A stretch of DNA of 47,296 nt from Leptospirales bacterium (GCA_013297885.1 JAAFIR010000037.1:1-47296); one strand, 5' to 3'. Positions 1-47,173 are shown, counted from the first letter of the stretch. Translations and numbers: made by a program. The notes: generated by a model not told the origin, from the letters alone.

Positions 1-124
1 AGCTTACAAAACAATTAAGCAAAGTATTAAAATTTATAATGAATCTAGACTTCATCAAAGTATAGATTATAAAACTCCTAATGAAGCATACTACGAAAAG
101 TGGTATACCTATTTTAGGAATTGA
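1..124 (+). mobile_element. IS3-family transposase (OrfB), 3' end only
   Basis: The frame from position 2 to the TGA at 122-124 encodes the last 40 residues of a DDE integrase-type transposase. The tail reads YNESRLHQSIDYKTPNEAYY, the usual end of IS3-family OrfB proteins, which follows the catalytic Glu helix. The rest lies outside the window. The stop codon sits directly on the 3' end of a disrupted DUF1566 lipoprotein on the other strand, so the right end of the element is at about 119-130. The left window edge inside an insertion sequence suggests an assembly break at a repeat. Confidence 0.85.
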
Positions 125-1443
125 CAGAGTTCCCCCATTGATAATTGTTTACAGTGCCTGAACAGGTTGCATCGTTGTTCTGACTTCTGCTACACTTCTG
201 CCAGATTAGTCCAGTTTTTTTGTCTAGTATTGTTCCATTATTGTTGTCCACAAAATTTTGAGTTGAGTTTTCTTGTTCGGATATACAACGTACATAAGCG
301 TTATTGGTCTTAGTGAAGTTGTTGACAACACCATTAGAGAAATAAACAAGCAACGCTAGTGCTGTATTAGTTGCGTTGGTAGTAGAACTCCAATAAGTGT
401 TAAAAACCGTAGCCGGAAAAGCCGCATTGATTGATGGATTTGAAACTCCACTATCCACTAAGTCAACTAGCTCATTTACTGTTGGGACACGCCAAGTTCT
501 TCCAGCTAAAGTTAAACCAGAACAATAAGTTGTTTGGTTTGCCCAGGTGTCCTGTGTAGCAGTACCAATTCCACATGTTGCACCAGAAAGTCCCCTTGAG
601 CATCTCTGCCAGATTAATCCAGAATAGTTGTCTGTTACAGTTCCGTCCATATTATTTGTGTAAGAGCGTGCAACACCAGTTTGGTTTGTGCCATTATCTC
701 CTGCTTGGTAAACGGTTGTTTGTCCTGTGCGAATGGAGAGATAAGAATATTCTCTAGTAACTGTGTCTGATCCCACTCCATCTTTAAAATTTTTACATTT
801 TAAAGTGAGTCCAGCAAGATGGTAAACATCTACTGGTGTGGAATAAATTGTTGAATTTGAAGTTGGCTCGTTTCCGTTTGTGGTGCAACGAATTTGTCCA
901 CAATTGGATGATGTGAAAGTGATGGTTTGGGGTGTGGAATAATTTCCAGATGCAAGTGAAAATGTTGGGGTTGTGCTGGAACAAGAAATAGAAATATTTG
1001 AAACATTTGCAGAAATTGTGCCAAAACCAGAAGTCACATTACAAGTTGAGTTTGTAGGCTGGGTTGTTATAGATACAGAATAAGCAATTCCAGATGATAA
1101 AGTATTAGCAAACTGAAATGTAGAGGAACCTGAATTGATGGTTAATGTTTGGTTGGAAGGAGCTCCAACTTGAAAGGACTAAACCATTTGTAGTTAAACC
1201 AGTTATGTTGCCACCTAGTGTGAAACTTCGAGCAGGACTTCCTGTCCCTGTTGCGACTCCTGTTCCTGTCCCTGTTGCAACTCCTGTTCGAGTACCTGTT
1301 ACACCTACAAATCGAATTAAACCAGTAGTTATCAAACTACTTGTAACCGGATTATTGGTGTTAGAAAAATCAAATATAGATTTTTTTGCTTCACGGCAAT
1401 TAAGTTGAAATAAAATGAAACTAATAAATAGAAACTTTGGCAT
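114..1443 (-). pseudogene. DUF1566 lipoprotein, frameshifted and cut by IS3
   Basis: The start at 1443 (ATGCCAAAG, preceded by AAAGG) gives a lipoprotein signal peptide with lipobox QLNC. A low-complexity GVATGTGTG stretch follows, then a small beta domain (GGNITGLTTNGLVLS). The frame breaks near 1165-1180. The other frame continues the same domain (VGAPSNQTLTINSG) into a chitobiase-type C-terminal domain (TPTFSLASGNYSTPQTITF) and the DUF1566 repeats (GLIWQRCSRG, GRTWRVPTVNELVDLV, YVRCIS). Restoring the frame needs one extra base. The protein then stops at NYQWGNSVNS, exactly where intact relatives continue CNSLTLAGRTWRLP, because the IS3 end begins there. Two independent lesions make this a pseudogene. 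An intact product would be a surface or periplasm-facing lipoprotein of unknown role. Confidence 0.88.
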
Positions 1444-3238: not shown

Positions 3239-4069
3239 TTGGGAATTTTCTTAAATGCTTTTTTAAGAAGCATAATCGAATCTATTACAGAATTTCTGCC
3301 CGTATCTTCAACCGGGCATTTATTTTTATTCTCTTCAAATTTCCCTTTTACGGGAATTGAAAATGCAAATGAATTTGATGATCTATTTGATATTTTTATT
3401 CAGTCTGGAGCTATACTTGCAGTTTTAGTTTTGTACTTTTCTTTTTTAAAAGAAAAATTTTTACTTAGTGTAAATTATTTAAAAAAACAAACTGAAGATT
3501 TTTCAGGAATTCAATTTTTTATAAGTATTTTGATAGGAACTATTCCCATTTTAGTTTTTGGTTTTATATTTAAAAAAAAATTAGATATTATTAAATCTAG
3601 TGAAAACTTATTATTGGTTTTGGGACTTGCTTGGTTAATTGGAGGAGTATTAATTTTAACAATTGAAAAATTTTTCTCCACTGAAACAAAAACCCAACTT
3701 ACTTTTAAAGATTCAATCCTAATTGGAATTTTTCAATGTGTAGCATTAATACCCGGAGTTTCAAGATCTGGTGCAACTATCATGACAAGCAAAATCCTTG
3801 GATTAAAAAAAGACATTTCAGCTGAGTATTCCTTTTTTCTTGCTATACCAGTTTTGATTTCAGCATCAGCATATAAACTTTTTAAATATAGAACAATTTT
3901 AAATTCAGAAAATTTAATAATTTTAACATTTGGTTTTGTGCTTAGTTTTATTTTTTCAATTTTAGTTATTCGATTGTTTATAAGATTTATAAAAAAATAT
4001 TCTTTTATAAGTTTTGGATATTATAGAATATTTCTTGGAATAATAGTTTTAATAATATATTTTAGATAG
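3239..4069 (+). CDS. uppP: Undecaprenyl-diphosphate phosphatase
   Basis: This 276-residue membrane protein dephosphorylates undecaprenyl diphosphate to recycle the lipid carrier for peptidoglycan and surface polysaccharide. Both family signatures are present: [14 protein letters not shown] near the N-terminus, with the glutamates and the serine/histidine motif, and [10 protein letters not shown] at about residues 175-184. Length and about eight hydrophobic segments fit BacA/UppP. The start is TTG, placed directly after the TAA of the preceding lipoprotein, which implies translational coupling. The 3' end overlaps the converging STAS gene by eight bases. Confidence 0.95.
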
Positions 4070-4394
4070 TTAAAAAATTTTCAAGTGTTGAGAGTGGGAT
4101 ATATTTTTCGATCTGAGAAATTTTTAAAATTCCTCTAATGTTGGTTGGAGGATCCAAAATAAAAAGAGTTATATTTTTTCGTTTAAAATCGTTAATCAAA
4201 CGAATAATTGAACCCATACCAGAAGAATCAATATTTCTACATAATTTCATACTAATTCCAACAGTAAAAATATGAGGAGCTAATTTTTGTTTTAGTTCAA
4301 TTTCAAATTCTTTAAATGTCATCATATCCAGCATTCCTTCTAATTTAAAAATTAGTTTGGAGCCATCTTCGTAAGAATCAAATTTTAAACTCAT
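4062..4394 (-). CDS. STAS-domain anti-sigma factor antagonist
   Basis: This 110-residue single-domain protein carries the STAS switch motif [15 protein letters not shown] at about residues 52-66. The serine pair after Asp is the usual phosphorylation site in SpoIIAA/RsbV proteins, where a kinase-like anti-sigma factor phosphorylates the serine to break binding. The flanking strands ([11 protein letters not shown] and [10 protein letters not shown]) fit the fold. It stands alone on its strand and converges on uppP. Its partner is not adjacent; the ATPase at 6106-6822 is the nearest candidate. Confidence 0.85.
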
Positions 4395-4569
4395 TTGAAC
4401 AAGATTCCAAACATTTTTTATTTTTACAATTAGGATTTTAAAAATTAATAGAAATAATTATAAAAATCTAAATTTAAAAAAATTTATTTGTAAAAATTAC
4501 CAAAGTTATCTAAAATGACATAGAATTGTATAATGAATAAAAAAATAAATTTATTTCAAAAAAACTTTT

Positions 4570-4600
4570 TTGACTTGATTCCAGTTCTTATTTGACTTGA
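4570..4600 (+). promoter_or_regulatory. Two 9-bp direct repeats upstream of the symporter
   Basis: TTGACTTGA occurs at 4570-4578 and again at 4592-4600, 22 bp apart, about two helical turns. This spacing suits a regulator binding one face of DNA. The second copy also resembles a -35 box, but the nearest -10-like hexamer (TAGAAT, 4612-4617) is only 14 bases away. The stretch 4395-4569 is otherwise plain AT-rich intergenic DNA. Confidence 0.35.
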
Positions 4601-4626
4601 AGATTACAGTCTAGAATGGATTATAT

Positions 4627-6141
4627 ATGGGAATCTGGGATTTAATTTTTTTAATTAGTTATTTAGCATTAATCGTTTATTTTGGTTTAAAATTTTCTAA
4701 ACAAAATACAAAAGAATCCTATTTTTTAGGAAATAAAAATCTACATTGGAGTTTAATTCTTTTTTCAATAGTCGCAACTGAAACGTCTAGTTTAACTTTT
4801 TTGAATATTCCATCAATAAGTTATAAAGGAGATCTAAATTTTTTACAAATTGCACTTGGTTTTATAATCGGAAGATTTTTAGTTTCAGCAATTTTAATTC
4901 CTTTTTATTTTAAAGAAGGTTATTCTAGCATATACGAACTTGTGAAAAATAAATTTGGAGTAAAAGCTCAAAAATTAGTTTCAGGAATTTTTTTGATTTC
5001 TAGAATTTTAGGAGATGGAATAAGGCTTTATGCAACTTCAATTCCAATTTCATTTTTACTTAAACAGTCTTTTTTAAATAATTTTTCTGATACTGAAATT
5101 AGAATTTTTTCATTATTACTAATTACAATTTTAACAGGGGTTTATACAATTCTTGGTGGCTTTCAATCAGTAATCATTACTGATAGCATTCAATTTTTTA
5201 TTTATATTTTTGGTGGAATTTATTCTTTTTATTTTTTATATTCTTTACTCAATTTAAATTCAACAGAAATCATTTCAATTTTATCTGAAAAAAATAAATT
5301 ACAAATTTTTGATTTTAAAGGTACATTAAATTTAATTTATAAAATATATATTACATTAGAAATTAAAAATTTTTTATCTTTAATTTATTCATTATTTGTT
5401 AGTATTAATGGTGTGATTGCAGGTATTTTTATTTCAATTGGCTCACACGGAGTTGACCAAATGTTTGCACAAAGATATTTAGCTACAAAAAATGAAAAAG
5501 AAAGCAAACTTGCTCTTAACTTATCAGGTATTATTGTATTTTTTCAGTTTTGTTTATTTTTAGGAATTGGTTTATTATTATCTATTTATTATTCCAATGA
5601 AGTAATAAAAGGAGATAAAGTATTTTCAAAATTTATAACTGAAAAAATTCCATCTCCACTTTTAGGCATAATTCTAGCTGCAATTTTAGCAAGTGCTATG
5701 TCCACTTTATCCAGCTCCATAAATTCAATGTCGATGACAATTGTATATGACTGGCTAAAAAATAAGGATTCAAAAAAAAATAATATTTTATTAAGTTTAA
5801 TTTGGTCTCTTGTATTATTTTTTAGTTCCATGCTTCCTTATTTTTTTACTGAGGATTTTGGAAAAAATTTAGTTGAAATTGGATTAAAAATTGCTTCTTA
5901 TTTTTATGGAAGTTTAATTGGATTATTTTTTTATATTCGATTTACCAAATCAAAAAAAGAAGGATCATCATTTAACTGCATTTTATCTTTATTAATTTCT
6001 ATTTTTATAACAATATATTTAAGTTTTGAATTTAAACTAATTTCTGCGTATTTAATTCCAGTTGGAATTTTGAGTTTTTATATACCTCTAATCCTAATGA
6101 ATTTTTTAAATCGCAATATGACGTTTACTGATAAAATTTAA
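4627..6141 (+). CDS. Sodium:solute symporter family transporter
   Basis: This 504-residue polytopic protein has about 13 hydrophobic segments, as in SSS-family transporters that couple solute uptake to sodium. Recognisable parts are the start IWDLIFLISYLALIVYFGLK, the KESYFLGNKNLHW loop after helix 1, the SIVATETSSLTFLNIPS segment with the unwound-helix signature, SHGVDQMFAQRYLATKNEKE in the middle, and ILASAMSTLSSSINSMSMT, the conserved helix with sodium-binding serines. The substrate cannot be told. ATG at 4627 has no clear ribosome-binding site. The end overlaps the converging ATPase gene by 36 bases. Confidence 0.9.
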   Translation: MGIWDLIFLISYLALIVYFGLKFSKQNTKESYFLGNKNLHWSLILFSIVATETSSLTFLNIPSISYKGDLNFLQIALGFIIGRFLVSAILIPFYFKEGYSSIYELVKNKFGVKAQKLVSGIFLISRILGDGIRLYATSIPISFLLKQSFLNNFSDTEIRIFSLLLITILTGVYTILGGFQSVIITDSIQFFIYIFGGIYSFYFLYSLLNLNSTEIISILSEKNKLQIFDFKGTLNLIYKIYITLEIKNFLSLIYSLFVSINGVIAGIFISIGSHGVDQMFAQRYLATKNEKESKLALNLSGIIVFFQFCLFLGIGLLLSIYYSNEVIKGDKVFSKFITEKIPSPLLGIILAAILASAMSTLSSSINSMSMTIVYDWLKNKDSKKNNILLSLIWSLVLFFSSMLPYFFTEDFGKNLVEIGLKIASYFYGSLIGLFFYIRFTKSKKEGSSFNCILSLLISIFITIYLSFEFKLISAYLIPVGILSFYIPLILMNFLNRNMTFTDKI

Positions 6142-6822
6142 ATTAAAAGGGATTTCAATCCGAGCAAAAGTATTTCCATCTTTAGTTCCAATTCGATATA
6201 ATGAAGGATCTAATTCTTCAGCTTTAAGAAGAATTAAACTTAGGACAAGTCCAAGACCTTCACCTTCTGTATTATCAGCATTTTCCATATAATAACTCAT
6301 AAGGTTATCATATTTTTCACCTAATGCTAGCTTTTCACGAATTCTTAATTCTTCAGATGGTAGAAGTAAAGTATTATTTAAAATTTCAACTTCAAGTCCT
6401 TGGTCATCAAAACTAAATTGAACTTTTACATATACTCCTTTATCTTTATTTTTCAAACCGTAATTTCTAAGATTAGCTTTGTTGATTAGTTTTTTAAATT
6501 CAATAATTCCTTTTTGATATTCCATCGAATCTTTTATGTTTAAAGCATGCTCTAGAAAAAAAAGTTTTTTTGCATTTGCTTTAACACCATTTAGAATAGA
6601 TTCAAAAATAATATTGTAAACTGTGTTAATTAATTTTTCTTTTTTATATTTTATCAAAATTAACTTGAGAGCATGTTTGATAACTTCTTCAATTGAATTT
6701 GTGAATCCATAAACCATAATAATAATTTTTTTAGAATTTATAAATTCAGAATCCAATAATTTCATTGAATCTATTTCATCCATTCCGGCAATTTCTTCGA
6801 TTGTAATCTGATTATTACTCAT
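6106..6822 (-). CDS. Bergerat-fold ATPase-like regulator, possible STAS partner
   Basis: This 238-residue protein ends with an HATPase-like domain. YNIIFESILNGVKANA at about residues 67-82 looks like the N-box helix (Glu...Asn), and EGEGLGLVLSLILLKA at about 191-206 is a clear G2-box. The usual DxGxG of the G1-box is replaced by NNTLLL, so ATP binding may be altered. There is no HisKA domain and no phospho-accepting His segment, so it is not an ordinary histidine kinase. It starts three bases after the stop of the STAS gene, so the two are one operon. RsbW/SpoIIAB-like partner switching is the natural reading but is inference. Confidence 0.7.
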   Translation of the reverse strand: MSNNQITIEEIAGMDEIDSMKLLDSEFINSKKIIIMVYGFTNSIEEVIKHALKLILIKYKKEKLINTVYNIIFESILNGVKANAKKLFFLEHALNIKDSMEYQKGIIEFKKLINKANLRNYGLKNKDKGVYVKVQFSFDDQGLEVEILNNTLLLPSEELRIREKLALGEKYDNLMSYYMENADNTEGEGLGLVLSLILLKAEELDPSLYRIGTKDGNTFARIEIPFNLNFISKRHIAI

Positions 6823-6825
6823 TTT

Positions 6826-7167
6826 TTAAAGCTCTAAACAAGCCTCAACAGCAGAATCTTCATCAGCAAACATTTGTGATGGAGTGTTTTTTACTGAAAG
6901 CTTAATTATGTTTTCTACTGCACCATGACAATTACAGATATGAATTATACCATTATGCTTAAATAAATTTGATAAAGTTCTAAGAATCACGCCAACTCCA
7001 GATGAATCAATAAATGGAACTTCATTAAAATTGAATACAATTCTATATTTTTTTTGAGCCATTAATTCTTGCATCACTTCATTGATTGGTTCAATATCAT
7101 ACATAGTCACTTCACCTTTAATATCCAAAATGGGTATTGACTTTTTTTCTCTAAGTTCTACATTCAT
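6826..7167 (-). CDS. STAS-domain anti-sigma factor antagonist
   Basis: This 113-residue protein opens with MNVELREKKSIPILDIKGEV and holds the switch motif FNEVPFIDSSGVGVILRTL at about 48-66, with the serine pair that RsbW-type kinases phosphorylate. Length and strand order fit a free-standing RsbV/SpoIIAA protein. It is the first gene of a two-gene unit with the ATPase-like protein. Phosphorylation would be expected to control its binding to that partner; this is family knowledge, not seen directly. Confidence 0.9.
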   Translation of the reverse strand: MNVELREKKSIPILDIKGEVTMYDIEPINEVMQELMAQKKYRIVFNFNEVPFIDSSGVGVILRTLSNLFKHNGIIHICNCHGAVENIIKLSVKNTPSQMFADEDSAVEACLEL

Positions 7168-7316
7168 AATTACCTAATATTTCTAAATTTTCTTAAACAA
7201 TAGTTTTTTAAAATTTGATTGCATTTTGTCAATAAGAATCTTAAAATCTAATTAATTTACTTTAAACCAAATGTATTTAAATAATTTGAAAGATTTTTTT
7301 CGGTAAATTCCTTTTA

Positions 7317-7445
7317 ATGATACAAATTTTTAATTTTTTACAAAAAATTAAACCAACTACCAAAACCCAAAAAAAACAGACTTTTCAAACTTTAGTTTGT
7401 AAGCTAAATAAAAGTGATGAACTAGTTATTACTTTCACTCTTTAA
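7317..7445 (+). CDS. Possible 42-residue small protein
   Basis: An ATG-started frame encodes MIQIFNFLQKIKPTTKTQKK followed by QTFQTLVCKLNKSDELVITF and a short tail. The mix of basic residues and a terminal beta-like segment looks more protein-like than the surrounding AT-rich DNA, but no ribosome-binding site is visible and I recognise no family. It lies in the 430-base gap 7168-7595, whose only other visible structure is the hairpin at 7504-7543. Confidence 0.2.
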   Translation: MIQIFNFLQKIKPTTKTQKKQTFQTLVCKLNKSDELVITFTL

Positions 7446-7503
7446 CTTATACCGATTGACAATACTAATTACCTATTTTAAGCAACAAAATTCAAACGGA
7501 CAT

Positions 7504-7543
7504 ACACCTAGCTAAAAGTAATAGAATTACTTTTAACACCTAG
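7504..7543. repeat. Perfect hairpin flanked by 8-bp direct repeats
   Basis: TAAAAGTAAT (7513-7522), loop AGA, and ATTACTTTTA (7526-7535) form a perfect 10-bp stem. ACACCTAG flanks it at 7504-7511 and 7536-7543. A palindrome bracketed by an 8-bp direct repeat resembles a tiny insertion with target duplication, or an operator between half-sites. There is no run of T after the stem on the strand of the neighbouring gene, so a terminator is less likely. Confidence 0.4.
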
Positions 7544-7595
7544 TATAAAAAAAGGTTAAATCTTTTTTTTATTTAATCAATTTAAATTGAAGCTA

Positions 7596-8351
7596 TTAAT
7601 TTGGTTCGCAAGTTACAGAAATTTTAGAATTCAAATTAAAATTTAGTCTTATTGTTCTTTTACTGCCAGAAGCACAAACTTGACCTTGGGTTAAACTATC
7701 TGAAGCTACTCCGCCATCATAAGCTGTTTCTCCAATAAAGGTAATTTCATCTGAACCAGTGACTGAAACAGAACAAGGCTTTAAAGTATTTACTCTACCA
7801 TTATCTAATCTAGCAGCAAGAAAAGTTCCTCTTATGATATTTCCATTTGAAGGATCAATTCTAGCAAGAAAAGTCACTTTTGGTCCACCTCCATTTCCAT
7901 AAGAACGTTGCACAGCATCAGAAGAAACAAAATTTCTGAGTCCTGTGTTTCCACCTGTTGCACTAAAAGCAACAAATAAATTGCCTGAATTTGCAAATAG
8001 TGCTTCACCTCGAGAATCATCTGGGGAGGTATCATAATCAGATTTATTCCAATCTTCTAAACCACTAGTAACTTTTTTTACAAATGCATCCTGATTAATA
8101 GAACTCACTTGCCTATATCCAACTGTGTAAACTGAATTTCCTGATGTAGAAGTATTGGTTGTAGTTATTCCAGCACAAGTAGAACTAGCAAAATTTTCAG
8201 GAGCATTTGAAATGGTTGTGGGGCTTGTCTGATTTTGTCTAAAAATTGTAGCTAAAAAAAATCTGGTTTGATTTTCTTGGTTTTGTTTTTTGCCGTCATC
8301 AAATATCTCATTATTACAATTTAGCAAAAAAATAAAAATTATAAACTTCAT
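7596..8351 (-). CDS. Putative lipoprotein, unknown function
   Basis: A very short signal peptide, MKFIIFIFLLNC, ends in a lipobox at Cys12, followed by a polar linker. The body (about 70-250) has repeated beta-strand-like stretches such as NSVYTVGYRQ, GNLFVAFSATGG, VTFLARIDPSNGNIIRGTFL and SDEITFIGETAYDGG, resembling beta-propeller (SBBP-like) lipoproteins of Leptospira. Three cysteines late in the chain may form disulfides. I can name no function. The start ATG at 8351 directly opens the signal peptide. Confidence 0.75.
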   Translation of the reverse strand: MKFIIFIFLLNCNNEIFDDGKKQNQENQTRFFLATIFRQNQTSPTTISNAPENFASSTCAGITTTNTSTSGNSVYTVGYRQVSSINQDAFVKKVTSGLEDWNKSDYDTSPDDSRGEALFANSGNLFVAFSATGGNTGLRNFVSSDAVQRSYGNGGGPKVTFLARIDPSNGNIIRGTFLAARLDNGRVNTLKPCSVSVTGSDEITFIGETAYDGGVASDSLTQGQVCASGSKRTIRLNFNLNSKISVTCEPN

Positions 8352-8448
8352 ATTTTCTTAGACTTTTTCGATCAATATGTATCATAAAATTCTTTACTGC
8401 AAAATTTAATGAATTTTTATCAAAAAGTTTTAATCACTTATCCTGTTT

Positions 8449-8469
8449 ATTTGTCATGATAAGACAAAT
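8449..8469. promoter_or_regulatory. Operator-like inverted repeat in a divergent promoter region
   Basis: ATTTGTC (8449-8455) and GACAAAT (8463-8469) are perfect 7-bp arms with a 7-base spacer. The site lies between two divergent genes, the lipoprotein starting at 8351 and the methyltransferase starting at 8537, where a dimeric regulator could control both. It contains TTTGTC/GACAAA half-sites that recall the TTTG-N5-CAAA box reported for leptospiral LexA, but the spacing differs, so I do not call it a LexA site. Confidence 0.35.
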
Positions 8470-8536
8470 TGGCATATTTAAAATTTCGAGTAAGATTTTG
8501 ATTTAATTTTTTTTTGGTCAATAAGAAATGTAAATT

Positions 8537-9400
8537 ATGAAACTAATTCCATGTAATTCTTGTGGCTCTAATGATTTTAATTTTTTGTATTCCAAATCTT
8601 CCCATTTAAATGAATTTTTTGAAATTGTAAAATGTAAATCTTGCAATCTAGTTCAAGTAAATCCTCAGCCAAGCTTTGAAGAAGTTGCAAAATATTATAC
8701 AAATGATTATTTTACAAAAAGAACTGACAGGGGTTATGATAATTATTATTCTTCTGAAATACGAAAAGAAATTGAAAGAGTATTTCAATTAAATCTATCA
8801 GACTTAAATTTTTTTAAGTGGGAAAAAACTCTAAAAATCAAAAAAACTTTGGATATAGGTTCTGCTGCTGGGTATTTTGTAGCTTATATGAAATATAAAA
8901 ACTGGGATTCATATGGAATTGAAATTTCTGATGAGCCAGTAAAATTTTCTGTAGAAACTTTAAAACAAATAGTTTTCAAAGAAGATTTTTTAAAGTGGGA
9001 TATTGAACAAAAAAATAAATTTCAGCTCATTACACTTTGGGCATCAATTGAACATTTGCATCATCCAAAAGAAACACTCAGGAAAATTTATTCTCATTTA
9101 GAACCAAACGGAAGAGTTATAATCAGTACATGTAGATATGGATTTTTAGCTCGTTTAAGAGGAATTAAATGGAGATTTTTAAATGTTCCTGAACATCTTT
9201 ATTATTATTCTAAAAAAAATTTAGTCAGTTTATGCGAAGAACTTGGATATAAAGTGATTCAACAAATTTCTTATGGTTCAGGTTTAACTGCAAAAAAAAA
9301 TGCTAATTTTATATATAAACTAACTAAATTATTCTGTGATAGATTAGTAAAATTTACAAATCAAGGAGACATGATTGCTATAATGCTAGAAAAAATCTGA
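8537..9400 (+). CDS. SAM-dependent methyltransferase with N-terminal zinc ribbon
   Basis: The 287-residue protein starts with a four-cysteine zinc ribbon (CNSCGS at 6-11 and CKSC at about 33-36, then NLVQVNPQP). A class I methyltransferase follows: motif I is LDIGSAAGYFVAYMKYKNW, then YGIEISDEP (acidic end of strand 2) and LITLWASIEHLHHPKETL (motif IV region). This architecture is typical of Methyltransf_23 enzymes that modify sugars in surface polysaccharide or secondary pathways; the substrate is unknown. It ends in TGA, which shows that TGA is a normal stop in this genome. Confidence 0.85.
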   Translation: MKLIPCNSCGSNDFNFLYSKSSHLNEFFEIVKCKSCNLVQVNPQPSFEEVAKYYTNDYFTKRTDRGYDNYYSSEIRKEIERVFQLNLSDLNFFKWEKTLKIKKTLDIGSAAGYFVAYMKYKNWDSYGIEISDEPVKFSVETLKQIVFKEDFLKWDIEQKNKFQLITLWASIEHLHHPKETLRKIYSHLEPNGRVIISTCRYGFLARLRGIKWRFLNVPEHLYYYSKKNLVSLCEELGYKVIQQISYGSGLTAKKNANFIYKLTKLFCDRLVKFTNQGDMIAIMLEKI

Positions 9401-9467
9401 AGCTGAAAAAAGAAATCACTTGACTTAGAAAGTGAATTCTTTAAAGTAATTGCATTAGGATTTTAGA

Positions 9468-11069
9468 ATGGAATTAGAAGCAAGACTTGAGAAGCCAAGC
9501 ATTTTACCGAACCGTTTACAAAACAATAATTTATTATTAAAATTAAAAACTCCACCTGCTGTTCATTTACCCCAAAGACAACCACTAGTTATAGGTTTAG
9601 CTATTGATAAAAGTTGGTCAATGAAAGGTGAAAAAATGGAAGCAACAATTGAAGCTGCATGTTCCATGGTTAATTGGCTAACTAGAAATGATTTTATAGC
9701 CATCATAGCTTACTCAGCTGACATACAAATTGTTCAACCATTAATTCAATTAAAAGAAAAAACTGCAGTTATTGATAAAATTCGTTCTATTCAAGTAGGG
9801 ACTTCAACAAATTTAAGTGGTGGTTGGCTTCAAGCATTACGAGGAGTTGAAAGTGCAGGTGTTCCAAACGCCTACAAAAGAGTAATTCTTCTAACAGATG
9901 GTCAAGCTACTTTAGGAATAAAAGACCCTGTGCAATTTAACCAAATTGCTGCAGACCATTCGGGAAGAGGAGTTTCCACTACTGCAATTGGTTTTGGTGA
10001 AGACTTTAATGAAACTTCCCTCAAAGATATTGCAATGTATGGAAAAGGCAATTTCTACTATGTTTCATCACCTGAAGAAACTTCAGAAATTTTTTTCAGA
10101 GAGTTTGGAGATATTGGGGCTTTGTATTCTCAAGCAACAGATGTTACAATAAATTTTTCACCTGGTGTAAAAATGGCAGAAATATACAATGATTTTACAT
10201 TTATTTCCAATTCAGATAATTCTGTTACAATCCAAGCTGGAGACATTAGAGCAGATGATTCTAGAAATTTAGTTCTTTCACTAGATATAGACTCTAACCA
10301 ATTAACAAATGCTTCTGATATCGCATCAGTTTCAGTTAGTTATTATAATCTCTTTGAAAAAATGAGATTAGAAAAAGTTGAAAAAATGATTCCATTAATC
10401 AAAACAGATTTGGAACCACCTTTAGATAAAGAAGTTGTTATTGAAAGATTAATCGCTTCTTCAGCCAAAACAATTATGAAAGTTGCAAGATTAATTAAAG
10501 AAAATGATATTACTCTGGCACGTTCCATTTTACAAACTTCTATTGATAAAGTTGAAGAAAACTTAAAACTTTCCAACGAAATTTTAATACCCATTCTGCA
10601 AAGACTAAGAAATATTGAAGTTAAAATTAGAGATAATTCGCCTTCAGCAAATATGACTAAACAATTTTTATCTGAAAGTACTGATCTTTATTCAAAAACA
10701 GACATCATCGACACTTCTGGAATTGAAATGCACGATCGAATATATGAACATAAAGTTATTGGTGATATTGACCTCTATAAATGCCCTGATCTCAAAAATG
10801 CGGTTCAATCTCAAATTAAAGAAGGTTATAGATTTATAGTATTTGATTTATCAGACTGCAAGTTCATTGACTCTTCTGCCATTGGTGCATTTATTCAAAT
10901 CGTTGGTTGGCTGAGAAAACGTGGTGGTGAATTCATAGTAACAAATATTACTGATTCTGTAAAAAAAGTGTTTTTGGTTACAAGACTTGAAAACCATATT
11001 AGAGTAGCTGGTTCATCAGAAGAAGCAAAAGATATAATTGAATCAATCATCGCTTCTGCTAAAAGATAA
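9468..11069 (+). CDS. von Willebrand A domain protein fused to a C-terminal STAS domain
   Basis: Residues 40-220 form a VWA domain with an intact MIDAS: IDKSWSMKG carries DxSxS (D47, S49, S51), a threonine lies in GTSTNLSGGW, and LLTDGQATLG supplies the last aspartate. A beta region and a helical segment (about 310-400) follow. The last 110 residues are a STAS domain with KFIDSSAIGAFIQIVGW and an RVAGSSEEAKDIIES tail. No signal peptide is present, so it should be cytoplasmic. The fusion suggests that metal-dependent protein binding is linked to serine-phosphorylation switching, perhaps with the STAS/ATPase pair 2.3 kb upstream. The 3' end overlaps the read-through frame of dprA by 27 bases. 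Confidence 0.85.
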   Translation: MELEARLEKPSILPNRLQNNNLLLKLKTPPAVHLPQRQPLVIGLAIDKSWSMKGEKMEATIEAACSMVNWLTRNDFIAIIAYSADIQIVQPLIQLKEKTAVIDKIRSIQVGTSTNLSGGWLQALRGVESAGVPNAYKRVILLTDGQATLGIKDPVQFNQIAADHSGRGVSTTAIGFGEDFNETSLKDIAMYGKGNFYYVSSPEETSEIFFREFGDIGALYSQATDVTINFSPGVKMAEIYNDFTFISNSDNSVTIQAGDIRADDSRNLVLSLDIDSNQLTNASDIASVSVSYYNLFEKMRLEKVEKMIPLIKTDLEPPLDKEVVIERLIASSAKTIMKVARLIKENDITLARSILQTSIDKVEENLKLSNEILIPILQRLRNIEVKIRDNSPSANMTKQFLSESTDLYSKTDIIDTSGIEMHDRIYEHKVIGDIDLYKCPDLKNAVQSQIKEGYRFIVFDLSDCKFIDSSAIGAFIQIVGWLRKRGGEFIVTNITDSVKKVFLVTRLENHIRVAGSSEEAKDIIESIIASAKR

Positions 11070-37280: not shown

Positions 37281-38822
37281 ATGAAATCCCTTTTTTTGAT
37301 ATTTGTAATTCTAAAATGTTCACCACAAAATATCACTTCACCTTGTGATCCAAAAAACAAAACTTTTCAAGGTCTGGTGATTTTAAATTCTATTTTTAAA
37401 TTAAATAGTTCTGTTTGTAATATAAAAGTAAATACTCAATCATCATCAGAAGCTTCAAACTCTCCATCACCAATTCCCACGACACCAACTCCTTCCCCCA
37501 CTACACCAGCTACGATTCTTCCAAATTCAAAAGACATCACTACTTTTAGTTTTGCAATGGCTCAAACTGGTCTAAATAAAAACTATAATGCAACTATAAC
37601 TGACACAACAATTAATGTGGATTTGCCTTATGGAGTTGGTCTAAACTTAATTCCCACTTTCACTACAACAGGGCAAACTGTGACTGTTGCTTCAGTGACT
37701 CAAACATCCGCAACTACTTCCAATAATTTTTCAACTAACAGCATATATACCGTAACAGCACAGGATGGTTCCACAAAAACCTATTCAGTGAATGTGTATC
37801 AAATAACCCCGGTTGAAGATACGGGACAAGTTAATTGTCACAACGATTCTTCAATACAAACTTGTGCATCAGTTAGTGCTACTTTTCCAAGACAAGATGG
37901 CCATATGATGGATATACCAAATTCAAGAGGGTTAACAAGTCTGACCACAAACACAGGATATACAAATGATTTTGTTACAAAAAATATTTTAACAGGGATT
38001 GTTTGGAAAACTTGTGTTGAAGATAAAACTGATTCTATTTGTTCGACTGGCACAGCAGACACAATGATCTTGACTAATGCCAATATTGCTTGTTCCAATT
38101 TGAATTCTGCAAATTCAGGAGCTGGTTATGCTGGATTAAAAAATTGGAGACTTCCTGTTCTTCAAGAATTATTGCAATCCCAAACTTATATTACCAATGC
38201 AGTTTATTTTGACCCAATTCATTTTCCAGGGGCGATTAATGCTGTAAATACTAGAACATCGTCCAGAATCATTCCAAATGCAGCTTCTAGTTTTGTTTCA
38301 AATGGTGGCGCCAATGGATCATTTTCTCTCGCAACAGATGGTACTGCTACTTATGTACGCTGTGTTTCTGGTGGAACTTATCCAAATTCTGATTATTTGG
38401 ATAATGGTGATGGAACAGTCACTGAAAAAAGATCAAAATTAATTTGGCAGAAATGTGCAATTGGACAAACAAATGATGCCGCTTGTTCAGGAACAGTTTC
38501 TCAAATCACTTGGTCAAATTCACTTAATACTTGTAATTCACTCACTTTAGCTGGTAGAACATGGAGGCTTCCAAATTCAAATGAATTAGCTTCATTTTTG
38601 GATTTAACAAAAGCAACAGCACCTTATGTGAATCCATTGTTTGTTAATTTTCCAAGCGGTGGAAATAATAGGAATTTTAATTCTAGTACTTCTTTAGCTG
38701 GGAGTGTTCTTTATAATTATAGATTTAATTTGACAACACCTGCTGGTGTAACTTTAGATACTAAAAACAATGGAACTGTCACGACTAATGATTACAATGC
38801 CCGCTGTGTCACAGGTCCATAA
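37281..38822 (+). CDS. DUF1566 lipoprotein (intact member)
   Basis: The signal peptide MKSLFLIFVILKC has a lipobox at Cys13. After a Pro/Thr/Ser linker comes a DUF5018-like beta domain (ITTFSFAMAQTGLNKNYNAT to STKTYSVNVYQ, about 88-170). Then come two DUF1566 units: one with ILTGIVWKTCVEDK, NWRLPVLQELL and TYVRCVSGG, and one with LIWQKCAIGQTNDAACSG, GRTWRLPNSNELASFL and YNARCVTGP. The paired cysteines probably form disulfides. It is the only one of four DUF1566 genes in the window without a visible lesion and gives the reference for them. Function is unknown; export to the envelope is expected. Confidence 0.88.
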   Translation: MKSLFLIFVILKCSPQNITSPCDPKNKTFQGLVILNSIFKLNSSVCNIKVNTQSSSEASNSPSPIPTTPTPSPTTPATILPNSKDITTFSFAMAQTGLNKNYNATITDTTINVDLPYGVGLNLIPTFTTTGQTVTVASVTQTSATTSNNFSTNSIYTVTAQDGSTKTYSVNVYQITPVEDTGQVNCHNDSSIQTCASVSATFPRQDGHMMDIPNSRGLTSLTTNTGYTNDFVTKNILTGIVWKTCVEDKTDSICSTGTADTMILTNANIACSNLNSANSGAGYAGLKNWRLPVLQELLQSQTYITNAVYFDPIHFPGAINAVNTRTSSRIIPNAASSFVSNGGANGSFSLATDGTATYVRCVSGGTYPNSDYLDNGDGTVTEKRSKLIWQKCAIGQTNDAACSGTVSQITWSNSLNTCNSLTLAGRTWRLPNSNELASFLDLTKATAPYVNPLFVNFPSGGNNRNFNSSTSLAGSVLYNYRFNLTTPAGVTLDTKNNGTVTTNDYNARCVTGP

Positions 38823-41804: not shown

Positions 41805-43524
41805 TCAAGGTGCACTCACACAACGAACATTTAGAACAGCGAGCTTGATACCTGAGGTGACATCGCCAGCACCGAAAAGGATAAGCCACGCATTGGAGCT
41901 ATCAGGAGCGTAGGGAGTAGAACTCCAATAAGCGTCAGCAAATAATGTCCTAGGAAAGAATGTTGAATTGATTGTAGGGCTCGAGGAAAGTGTATAATCC
42001 ACAATGCTAATCAATTCATCTTTGTTGGGAACTCTCCAATTAGTTCTACCTGCAAAACCCCCACCAGGTATAGTATTAGCATCATTACAAGTTTTCCACA
42101 ATAAACTTGTGCTTCCGCCAATCCAAGATGCTGCTGGTTGTAAAGGTAAGCTAGGAGAGCCTCCATTACAGGCATTTGTAGTTGCATTACAAAACTGGTA
42201 TGTTCCCTGGGTTCCAGAACAAGTAGCACCACTCAAAGGAACACCAGTTGCACTACTCATAGAACATTTCATCCATGTTAACCCAGTATTATTATCCAAA
42301 ATTGTTTGATCTCCATTGTCTGTAAAAGATTGCAAACCTGATTGAACTAAACAATAAATTACATTATTTGAAACTGTTCCTGTGCCATTTATAACTGAAC
42401 AAGATTGAATAGAAGGTTGAGTTGCAACTATCACATTGTAATTGCTTCCACTATTCGGAATAGCTGGAAAAACAAAACTTCCATTTGTATTTATTGTTAA
42501 ATTGTCTATTGTGTTATTTTGTAAAACAAGAGTTCTTCCAGAAATTAAACCAACAACAGTTCCACCAATGCCTGCATTTGGAACAAAATTAATGATTACA
42601 TTATAATCCTGACTACTATTGTCTGATGCTACTACCGTGTATTTAATTGAATTCGTAAAATCATTTTCTTTTTCTCCGTTTAACTGCTCTATTCCATTCA
42701 CCAAAACTCTTTTTCCAGTGTGAGCAAAACTTGCAGCTAGGTTAGTTACATTTGTTCCAATGGGAAGAGAAACAAATATATTCGATCCTGAAATTGTTGC
42801 GGATGAAGAATTCAAAATAAACGACTTCATTTCTTTGGAAGAAGGTGAGCCAGTGATAACCGAAATTGTATATTGTTTTGTAGAATTATTAAATGCTTGG
42901 ATGTTCAATAAAACTGGAGAGGAATAATTGTTAGCAGTTCTACCAGAAATTTGTTCTATTCCACCGATTAATGCTTTGATTCCATTATGTGAAAATGTAG
43001 AAGTTAGATTAGTCAAACCAGTTCCATTAGCTATATAAACAGAAACGTTAGTTCCCACGATAACTCCTCTTGCTGCAACAGAATCAAATTGAAAATTTAG
43101 TAATGTGTTTGAATCAGCAGTTCCTGTTTTAGTACCAATTGTATAATTGAATATTGTTCCATACGCGGCACTAGTTTGAAAAGCAAAGTTGTTAGAAAAA
43201 TTATTTGCAGTTTCACCAGATCTTTGTTCTATTCCTCTGACGCTAGCTCTTGCTCCAGTGTAAAAAAAAGTTGCCACTTGAGAGTTTAGATTTGTAGAAA
43301 ATGGAACTGTTAAACTCACTTGTTTGCCTGTTATGATTCCTGAAGAATTGGTTGAAGAAATTTGGTAAAATTTTAAAGATTTAGCATCTGATGGTTTTAG
43401 CCCTGGAAAAAAAACTGGCCAAAGGCGAGCTAAAGCTCCAGCTGGGTCTTGTCGCATCTAAATCTTGTTTTAAAGGACTGCAAAAAGAAAGAAGAATTAG
43501 AAATAAAACTTTTTTGTTATTCAC
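41805..43524 (-). pseudogene. DUF1566 lipoprotein with a one-base frameshift after the signal peptide
   Basis: GTG at 43524 is preceded by AAGGAG with ideal spacing and opens NNKKVLFLILLSFCSPLKQD, a lipoprotein signal peptide with lipobox LSFC. The frame runs LDAT and then leaves the protein. One base less near 43440-43446 would give LDATDPAGALARLW and join the 550-residue frame that continues to 41805. That frame holds three DUF5018-like domains (such as LAASFAHTGKRVLVNGIEQL), a carboxypeptidase-like beta domain (VGGTVVGLISGRTLVLQNNT) and a C-terminal DUF1566 unit (NTGLTWMKCS, TNWRVPNKDELISIVDYTL). The reading frame after the lesion starts at an internal ATG (43457) and would lack any export signal. 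Confidence 0.85.
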
Positions 43525-45407: not shown

Positions 45408-45425
45408 GCCTGACAAAGTGACTCC
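45408..45425 (+). repeat. Decayed 3' half of the three-way-junction element
   Basis: AGCCTGAC followed by AAAGTGACTCC repeats the joint and closing strand of copy D (AGCCTGACC and TGACTCCC), but stem 3 is almost absent and no GAGTCA partner is found upstream. It abuts the stop codon of the next gene. Confidence 0.35.
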
Positions 45426-47173
45426 TATGGCACGCTGATACAACGGACTCGGTTAGTGTCTGTTTTTAGTTTTTTATCTCTGCCTGGCCATTCTACTTTA
45501 AAAGCTTTTGTAGAGTCACCCTCTATAGTCGTTGAAGTCCACATATTTCCATAAGAATTATCCCAAGAGAAATCAGGATTCAATTGAAACTCTTCCAGAG
45601 AAATATACATTGTCATAGCTTCATTTATATTAGGAAGTCGCCAAGTTTTTCCTAAATAATTTATATTTTTACAATAATTAATAGCAGCTATCCAAGTCAT
45701 CATTGTTGGAGTTCCATTTTCACAATCTGAACCAGTGATACCTTCTGTACATTTACGCCATAAGATTCCGTTGTTTGCATCTAAAACATAATCATTATTT
45801 ATTCTAAAAGTTTTTGGTTCTTTATGAATTCTTGAGCCAGCAACACATTTTAAAAAATTATTTTGAGGGCATAGACCCCCAATATTTGCCTTTTCTCCAT
45901 GACAAACCGCCGATTGAAGTCTTCCTGCATTTGTATAAAACAAAGAAAACACTACTGGTTGAAAATTACTATTTATATAATTCCCAATATAATTTATCGA
46001 ATTCTGATTTGGAAAATTATTTTTCATTGAAGTGTTAGTATTGTATAAAATTCCAAATCTATCCATTTCTTGGATATCAGGAGTTCTCCAGTCATTTCTA
46101 CCCGAGTATCCAACACCCCCATTTAAACCATTCAAGTAAACACAATCATCCTGATAAGAATTATTAAAACTCCCAACATTGCAGCTAACCCCAGAAAGTC
46201 CAGTTGGGCAACTTTGCCACACAAGCCCTGTTGTTGTGTCAGTGGTTGTGTAATCGTTTGTGTAAACAGGATGTTGGTTTGGACCAGAATACACTGAATG
46301 TGGTAAACCAGATTGGTATTCTCCATCTTGACCAGTTCCAGCACAAGAAATCACATTTCCACTAACGTTATAACAAGATGTTTGTCCTGTTTTGTAAGGA
46401 AGTTTTCCAAAAAATGTCAAAGTGATATTTGCAGTTGTGCTTCCACCTGAGTTGGTAGCTGTGATTGTGTACGCTGAAGTGGAACCTTCATTTTCAATGT
46501 AAGTTCCTGAAATTGCACCAGTGGACGTATTAAACAAAATCCCAATGGGAAGGGCAGGTAAGATAGAATAAGTAATTCCATTTCCTGTGACACTAGGTGA
46601 AATATTCATTGTAGTATTATTTGCATAACCTGTGTTATTCAGTGTGGGATACGACAAGTTAAGCGGAGGTTGTGCAACTGTGATTGTAATATTTGCAGTG
46701 ACATTTCCACCAGAATTGGATGCTGTGATTACATAAGCAATTGGTGTTTGTTCTGCATTTGTAGTTCCAGAAATAGCACAAGTTGTTTGGTTGATAGTTA
46801 GTCCTGTCGGAAGTGTTGGATTTGCAGAACAAGAAGTGATGGTGCCTGTTTTTGTGGGAGTGATTGTTTTTGCAACACCCACTGCAAAAGATAAATTTCC
46901 AGATGTTGGATAAAGCAAATTTGAAGGTGCTGGTGGAAAAACTGAAATGGAAAGAACAGTGTTTGATGTTCCAGCAGAATTCCCAACCGTGATTGTATAA
47001 TTATTTGCAGGAGTTACAGAAGATGGTGTTCCTGAAATTCTACAAGTTGTGGCAGTGAGAGAAAGCCCAGAAGGAAGAGCAGGACTAGAAGAACAAGATG
47101 TCACAATTCCTGAAACTGTTGGAGTTACACTTACAAGAATTCCAGTTGTGTAAGCAACAGAATTTCCCAGAGA
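45425..47173 (-). pseudogene. DUF1566 lipoprotein lacking its 5' end
   Basis: The frame is open from about 47173 (SLGNSVAYTTGILVSVTPTV) and has no signal peptide; TAG lies directly upstream at 47176. Three putative-Ig (He_PIG) repeats follow, each with the pattern LP.GL....T..ISGT (PALPSGLSLTATTCRISGTP, PTLPTGLTINQTTCAISGTT, PALPIGILFNTSTGAISGTY), then two DUF1566 units (GLVWQSCPTGLSGVSC, DWRTPDIQEMDRF; ILWRKCTEGITGSDC, TWRLPNINEAMTM, RVRCISVP). A GTG at 47104 could start translation but would give an unexported fragment. The missing 5' end abuts an IS256-like terminus, which probably caused the loss. Confidence 0.8.

What the first reader, a model, noticed from the sequence alone, without database searches (positions are those of the whole stretch)
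4062..11069. STAS-rich signalling neighbourhood with a VWA-STAS fusion
Three STAS modules lie within 7 kb: a lone STAS (4062-4394), a STAS plus atypical Bergerat ATPase operon (6106-7167), and a VWA protein ending in STAS (9468-11069). In the ATPase the G1-box DxGxG is missing while the G2-box is kept, so it may bind STAS partners without acting as a standard kinase. The VWA domain with an intact metal site could be the output arm of this switch. I do not know a described system with this combination.
Basis: partly seen in the sequence, partly recalled or inferred. Interest (0 to 1): 0.65.

Follow-up and report, generated by a model that had tools for sequence, protein, structure and literature searches.

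The report
Spirochaete-wide variant RsbW-like protein family
The three STAS genes sit together by accident of this one genome, but the odd 'ATPase' beside one of them belongs to a large, uncatalogued protein family found across spirochaetes in which one nucleotide-binding residue is nearly always swapped (aspartate to asparagine), so it is probably a modified signalling switch rather than a broken one.

Summary
All features described are real: a lone STAS (4062-4394), a STAS-ATPase operon (6106-7167) and a VWA-STAS protein (9468-11069) with an intact metal site. The 'neighbourhood' is not a system: in all three sister species these units lie on different contigs, and VWA-STAS has other neighbours throughout the class. 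Three of the genome's 26 STAS domains within 7 kb is p~0.016 by chance, picked after the fact.

The real find is the ATPase. It belongs to a family seen in 150 of 198 spirochaete genomes, up to 14 copies each, and only weakly matched by Pfam or NCBIfam. The predicted structure (pLDDT 90) is an RsbW/SpoIIAB-type Bergerat fold. The G1 aspartate, invariant in canonical RsbW-like proteins of related genomes, is asparagine in 145 of 146 aligned members, while the N-box Glu and Asn, the G2 glycines and a late Thr are kept: a conserved change, not decay. STAS pairing is a genus-level use of the family; elsewhere members stand alone or are fused to HDOD domains.

Best reading: an RsbW-like STAS partner with a modified nucleotide pocket. 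Kinase activity is neither shown nor excluded. New variant of a known kind.

The parts
6106..6822 (-). RsbW-like Bergerat-fold protein, 238 aa, member of the uncatalogued spirochaete family with Asn at the G1 Asp position
6568..6603 (-). N-box and following conserved motif E74-S-I-L-N78-G-V-K81-A-N83-A-K85
   Evidence: E74 146/147, N78 144/147, K81 143/147, K85 143/147
6364..6378 (-). G1 position: N149-N-T-L-L instead of D-x-G-x-G; N149 aligns with the invariant Asp of canonical RsbW-like proteins
   Evidence: Asn in 145 of 146 aligned members, Asp in one
6250..6267 (-). G2 box E186-G-E-G-L-G191
   Evidence: G189 141/146, G191 145/146
6169..6171 (-). T218, conserved Thr of the late strand
   Evidence: Thr 144/146
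6826..7167 (-). STAS protein, 113 aa, partner gene of the ATPase, within the anti-sigma-antagonist superfamily cut-off (TIGR00377 61.1 bits vs 53.45)
   Evidence: conserved as a pair in 4 of 4 genomes of the genus
7000..7008 (-). D54-S55-S56, candidate phospho-acceptor serine motif of the STAS domain
9468..11069 (+). VWA-STAS protein, 533 aa (VWA set in a beta-sandwich, helical bundle, flexible linker, C-terminal STAS); a separate conserved gene, not shown to belong to the STAS-ATPase pair
9606..9620 (+). MIDAS motif D47-K-S-W-S51 of the VWA domain (T114 at 9807-9809, D144 at 9897-9899)
   Evidence: invariant in 21 sequences
10725..11066 (+). C-terminal STAS domain with invariant D468-S-S470
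4062..4394 (-). lone STAS protein, 110 aa; genus-conserved, syntenic with bacA/uppP and lipL31, not with the other two units

Best explanation
The ATPase (6106-6822) is a member of a spirochaete-wide family of RsbW-like Bergerat-fold signalling proteins whose nucleotide pocket is modified in a conserved way: the base-contacting Asp of the G1 box is Asn, while the N-box Glu and Asn, the G2 glycines and a late Thr are kept (shown from sequence). In this genus one member has an adjacent STAS gene and most likely works as a partner-switch: it binds the unphosphorylated STAS protein and releases it, or another client, depending on the state of the nucleotide pocket and/or phosphorylation of the STAS Ser55 (inferred). 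The lone STAS and the VWA-STAS gene are independent signalling genes that happen to lie nearby in this genome.
For: Family: 150/198 spirochaete genomes, 9 copies in own genome, up to 14 elsewhere. Fold: pLDDT 89.7 model; best aligned structures LvrC Rec-Bergerat putative anti-sigma protein of Leptospira (Z 11.1, rmsd 3.5, 152 aligned), RsbW (10.8, 2.4, 114), SiaB (10.7, 4.1, 156), SpoIIAB (10.7, 3.0, 130). Pocket: Asn149 in 145/146, Glu74 146/147, Asn78 144/147, G191 145/146, T218 144/146; profile alignment with the helical insert cut out puts N149 on the invariant Asp and E74/N78 on the invariant Glu/Asn of canonical RsbW-like proteins of related genomes. STAS pair in 4 of 4 genomes of the genus, with the DSS serine kept; a second paralogue of the own genome also sits beside a STAS gene. 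A SpoIIE-type phosphatase lies beside the pair in one sister genome. Non-linkage of VWA-STAS and the lone STAS.
Against: No binding or activity data. The STAS pairing covers only one small clade plus one paralogue; among 102 distinct family copies with neighbours examined only 3 had STAS next door, and most copies are beside glycosyltransferase, SDR or other genes, so STAS need not be the ancestral partner. The profile match to canonical RsbW is weak (E=0.0008 only after removing the insert), and Foldseek E-values are all above 0.001. No SpoIIE gene is near the pair in the window.
Confidence: 0.55

Rival explanations
1. Pseudokinase adaptor: the altered G1 abolishes nucleotide binding; the protein is a pure protein-binding module that sequesters STAS partners.
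For: Asp of G1 replaced in 145/146; loss of the homologous Asp abolishes ATP binding in GHKL proteins such as Hsp90 D93N (established knowledge, not tested here).
Against: N-box Glu (the catalytic base), N-box Asn (Mg ligand), G2 glycines and Thr are almost invariant over the whole phylum; a pure adaptor would be expected to lose them in some lineages.
Confidence: 0.25
2. Active variant kinase (a stronger form of the best explanation): the Asn pocket still binds ATP and the protein phosphorylates STAS Ser55 like RsbW/SpoIIAB.
For: Catalytic Glu and Mg Asn kept; STAS keeps DSS; RsbW and SpoIIAB are among the closest folds.
Against: Family-wide Asp-to-Asn change at the residue that reads adenine; most copies have no STAS neighbour, and the genome already holds a canonical STAS-RsbW-SpoIIE cassette.
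Confidence: 0.3
3. One integrated switch: lone STAS, STAS-ATPase and VWA-STAS form a regulatory system with VWA-STAS as output arm.
For: Three STAS units in 7 kb, p~0.016 under uniform placement.
Against: Each unit is on a different contig in all three sister genomes, with different neighbours. VWA-STAS occurs in four families of the class without linkage.
Confidence: 0.04

Closest known systems
RsbW / SpoIIAB anti-sigma factor kinases (HATPase_c_2)
   Same: Bergerat fold (Z 10-11 to RsbW 6m37 and SpoIIAB 1th8); operonic STAS partner with phosphorylatable serine; N-box Glu/Asn and G2 kept
   Different: G1 Asp is Asn family-wide; helical insert of about 37 residues between N-box and G1; about 230 aa instead of 140; stays below the Pfam cut-offs
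LvrC of Leptospira interrogans (Rec-Bergerat, putative anti-sigma factor; PMC13269768)
   Same: Highest VIA Z among solved structures (11.1, 152 residues), tied with RsbW, SiaB and SpoIIAB; a spirochaete Bergerat-fold regulator
   Different: LvrC carries a Rec domain and was crystallised with ADP (PMC13269768); the family profile does not find it by sequence in the PDB at E<=1; the present protein has no Rec domain
SiaB threonine kinase of Pseudomonas aeruginosa (6kko)
   Same: Bergerat fold, Z 10.7 over 156 residues; partner-switch kinase
   Different: Its partner is SiaC, not a STAS-family neighbour gene as here; no SiaB-named family match was seen in Pfam or NCBIfam
VWA-beta-sandwich-helix proteins: ArnB / Sec23-24 core (8s05), Catenulispora VWA protein (4fx5), Synechocystis VWA protein annotated with a macro domain
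   Same: VWA set in a beta-sandwich followed by a helical bundle: 355-361 residues of the VWA-STAS model align (rmsd 17, so domain orientation differs); the Synechocystis protein matches query residues 28-387 at 29% identity
   Different: The C-terminal module is STAS here

Membership tests
RsbW/SpoIIAB (HATPase_c_2) anti-sigma kinase family | Sequence match above the curated family cut-off | tested here: not met
   Window protein: HATPase_c 15.6 bits against 26.4, no HATPase_c_2 match; best HATPase_c_2 E-value among 40 family members 0.0011
RsbW/SpoIIAB (HATPase_c_2) anti-sigma kinase family | N-box Glu and Asn | tested here: met
   E74 146/147, N78 144/147; aligned to E57/N61 of canonical proteins
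RsbW/SpoIIAB (HATPase_c_2) anti-sigma kinase family | G1-box Asp | tested here: not met
   Asn in 145/146 members; Asp invariant in 11 canonical proteins from relatives
RsbW/SpoIIAB (HATPase_c_2) anti-sigma kinase family | Bergerat fold | tested here: met
   AF2 model pLDDT 89.7; Z 10.8 RsbW, 10.7 SpoIIAB; shared fold, function not shown by this
RsbW/SpoIIAB (HATPase_c_2) anti-sigma kinase family | Phosphorylates a STAS partner and binds a sigma factor | not testable with these tools
   needs biochemistry
SiaB kinase family | Sequence match to a SiaB family model | tested here: inconclusive
   No SiaB-named model among the listed Pfam or NCBIfam matches at E<=1 (25 of 38 Pfam families shown); the fold resembles 6kko
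Anti-sigma-factor antagonist STAS proteins (TIGR00377), for 6826-7167 | Curated score and DSS serine motif | tested here: met
   61.1 bits against cut-off 53.45; D54-S55-S56
VWA proteins with MIDAS metal site, for 9468-11069 | DxSxS, Thr and Asp of the metal site | tested here: met
   D47, S49, S51, T114, D144 invariant in 21 sequences

The most novel reading that the evidence does not exclude
The conserved Asp-to-Asn change re-tunes the Bergerat pocket of a whole spirochaete-specific family to a different ligand (for example a guanine nucleotide or a nucleotide second messenger), giving spirochaetes a multi-copy set of partner-switch proteins controlled by that ligand rather than by ATP.
Probability: 0.1. 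Interest if true: 0.8.

Novelty: new variant of a known kind. Interest (0 to 1): 0.45.

Why it matters
A large, conserved signalling family of a whole phylum appears to have no database entry and no paper that I could find. Members occur from Leptospirales to Treponema-like genomes, as stand-alone proteins and as HDOD fusions. Its defining feature is a single conserved substitution at a residue that canonical relatives keep as Asp, which makes a clear biochemical question (what does the pocket bind?) directly testable. It also warns against reading a chance cluster of STAS genes as a system.

Tried and rejected
1) The three-STAS neighbourhood as one system: rejected by synteny in three sister genomes and in VWA-STAS loci of the class. 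2) G1 loss as decay in one protein: rejected, since Asn is family-wide. 3) Relatives outside the phylum: the top 80 of 160 hits in a collection of 84,980 species carry spirochaete-type titles apart from generic 'bacterium' records and one 'Caldithrix' MAG, whose phylum sample overlaps the spirochaete set, so it looks mislabelled; no match in 72,556 plasmid records. Hits 81-160 were not shown, so restriction to the phylum is likely but not proven. 4) Sequence relatives in the PDB: none. 5) First genome-contig query with the full alignment failed for lack of a conserved stretch. 6) Direct hhalign of the whole family against canonical RsbW aligned only the N-box; the insert had to be removed to reach G1. 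7) Promoter and terminator scans were at shuffle level. 8) Complex prediction (STAS with ATPase) was not possible with the single-chain tool; the VWA-STAS model has pTM 0.50, so domain orientation is unknown. 9) Literature: no paper in the open library with the terms HDOD+HATPase+Treponema or STAS domain+von Willebrand+Leptospira; broader searches showed nothing on this family. Subscription journals are mostly not held.

Full report
WHAT IS THERE. The window is contig C72 of a 4.6 Mb spirochaete genome (LipL31-like lipoprotein next door). The ATPase 6106-6822(-) follows the STAS gene by 3 bp and is recognised only below the HATPase_c cut-off (E=0.022). The VWA metal site is intact and invariant in 21 orthologues, as is the DSS motif of its STAS domain.

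IS THE CLUSTER A SYSTEM? Probably not. The genome holds 26 STAS matches, and three within 7 kb occur in 1.6% of random placements. In the three other genomes of the genus the lone STAS, the STAS-ATPase pair and VWA-STAS lie on three different contigs each: G095 C84/C96/C76, G278 C7/C77/C620, G176 C83/C229/C68. The lone STAS keeps company with bacA and lipL31 in all of them. VWA-STAS occurs in four families of the class; outside this window none of the loci examined has a member of the ATPase family among its neighbours, and in one family it sits in its own conserved gene string. What does hold in 4 of 4 genomes is the STAS-ATPase pair.

THE ATPASE IS A PHYLUM-WIDE FAMILY. A search of 198 genomes of the phylum found relatives in 150, often in many copies: 9 in the own genome, up to 14 elsewhere. 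In many genomes the domain is the N-terminal half of a ~500 aa protein whose C-terminal half is an HDOD domain (E to 7e-58), including a 1.1 Mb single-contig genome; the cultured Breznakiella homolactica has one copy, in a frame of HDOD-fusion length. The window protein passes no Pfam or NCBIfam cut-off; over 40 members the best HATPase_c E-value is 0.00021 (a member-like protein with E 0.00025 scores 21.9 bits against a cut-off of 26.4), the best HATPase_c_2 E-value is 0.0011, and NCBIfam gives nothing better than 0.001. In a scan of 84,980 species the best 80 loci carry spirochaete-type titles, apart from generic records and one apparently mislabelled MAG; the plasmid collection has no match.

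STRUCTURE AND POCKET. AlphaFold2 gives a confident model (pLDDT 89.7, pTM 0.87). Among PDB chains the best aligned are LvrC of Leptospira (Rec-Bergerat, putative anti-sigma factor, PMC13269768), RsbW, SiaB and SpoIIAB, Z 10.7-11.1, above the histidine-kinase and PDK rows at about 7. With the helical insert removed, profile alignment puts E74/N78 on the N-box Glu/Asn and N149 on the G1 Asp of canonical RsbW-like proteins of related genomes. Over 146-147 aligned members Asn149 is kept in 145 (one Asp), Glu74 in 146, Asn78 in 144, G191 in 145, Thr218 in 144, and a KANxKR motif follows the N-box. In canonical relatives the Asp is invariant. From established knowledge, this Asp contacts the adenine amino group in GHKL proteins, and its change to Asn in Hsp90 abolishes ATP binding. 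The remaining pocket residues are strongly conserved, so the family is better described as a modified pocket than as a dead one; what it binds is unknown.

GENE CONTEXT. Among 102 distinct copies with neighbours, recurring neighbours are a glycosyltransferase (17), a divergent histidine-phosphatase-superfamily gene (9), an RNase_H-superfamily gene (9) and a short-chain dehydrogenase (8). STAS is adjacent only in the window's genus clade and in one further paralogue of the own genome. The pairing clade has support 0.999, and the nearest other member has no STAS neighbour, so the pairing looks recent. The own genome also encodes a canonical STAS-RsbW-HAMP/SpoIIE cassette, and in one sister genome a SpoIIE phosphatase lies beside the variant pair.

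VWA-STAS. The model (pLDDT 82.7, pTM 0.50) has a VWA set in a beta-sandwich, a helical bundle, a disordered linker and STAS. The first three parts align over about 355-361 residues with ArnB (described as an archaeal Sec23/24 core orthologue) and a Catenulispora VWA protein, at an rmsd of 17 that reflects different domain orientations, and over query residues 28-387 with Synechocystis proteins annotated with a macro domain. So the fusion is a known VWA chassis with a STAS module attached; outside the class only VWA-part or STAS-part matches were seen among listed hits.

VERDICT. Shown: family, distribution, conserved substitution, predicted fold, genus-level STAS pairing. Inferred: STAS binding, nucleotide-dependent switching. 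Unknown: ligand, kinase activity, output.

Noticed in passing
L259:3571-6960 (G000:C22, about 79,070-82,459): A complete canonical STAS-RsbW-HAMP/SpoIIE partner-switch cassette in the same genome.
   Followed up: partly
L079:667-2232, L066:1486-2964, L075:652-2157, L087:1450-2925: Fusions of the variant Bergerat domain to HDOD domains, widespread in the phylum including a 1.1 Mb genome.
   Followed up: partly
L099:6824-7627, L109, L144-L147 and others: A family-2 glycosyltransferase directly downstream of the family gene in 17 of 102 copies; short-chain dehydrogenase in 8; divergent histidine phosphatase in 9. The meaning is unknown.
   Followed up: no
L227:1495-2943: The single family member with Asp at the G1 place (IIDNSP); a natural contrast for biochemistry.
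   Followed up: no
L133:3611-14696 and syntenic loci L124-L129, L136: VWA-STAS in one family sits in a conserved string with TPR-like, outer-membrane-like, cyclic-nucleotide-binding-like and O-acyltransferase-like genes (read from sequence, not scored).
   Followed up: partly
L046/L285 (G095:C76:4912-6442): The VWA-STAS gene of one sister genome is split over two frames: frameshift or assembly error.
   Followed up: no
L215 (DYKF01000007.1): MAG labelled Caldithrix sp. whose phylum sample overlaps the spirochaete set; probably mislabelled.
   Followed up: partly
window 114-1037, 37281-38822, 41805-43457, 45425-47104: Several long secreted-looking proteins with similar C-terminal segments (W..C, R-V-P-N) recur through the window; not analysed.
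   Followed up: no
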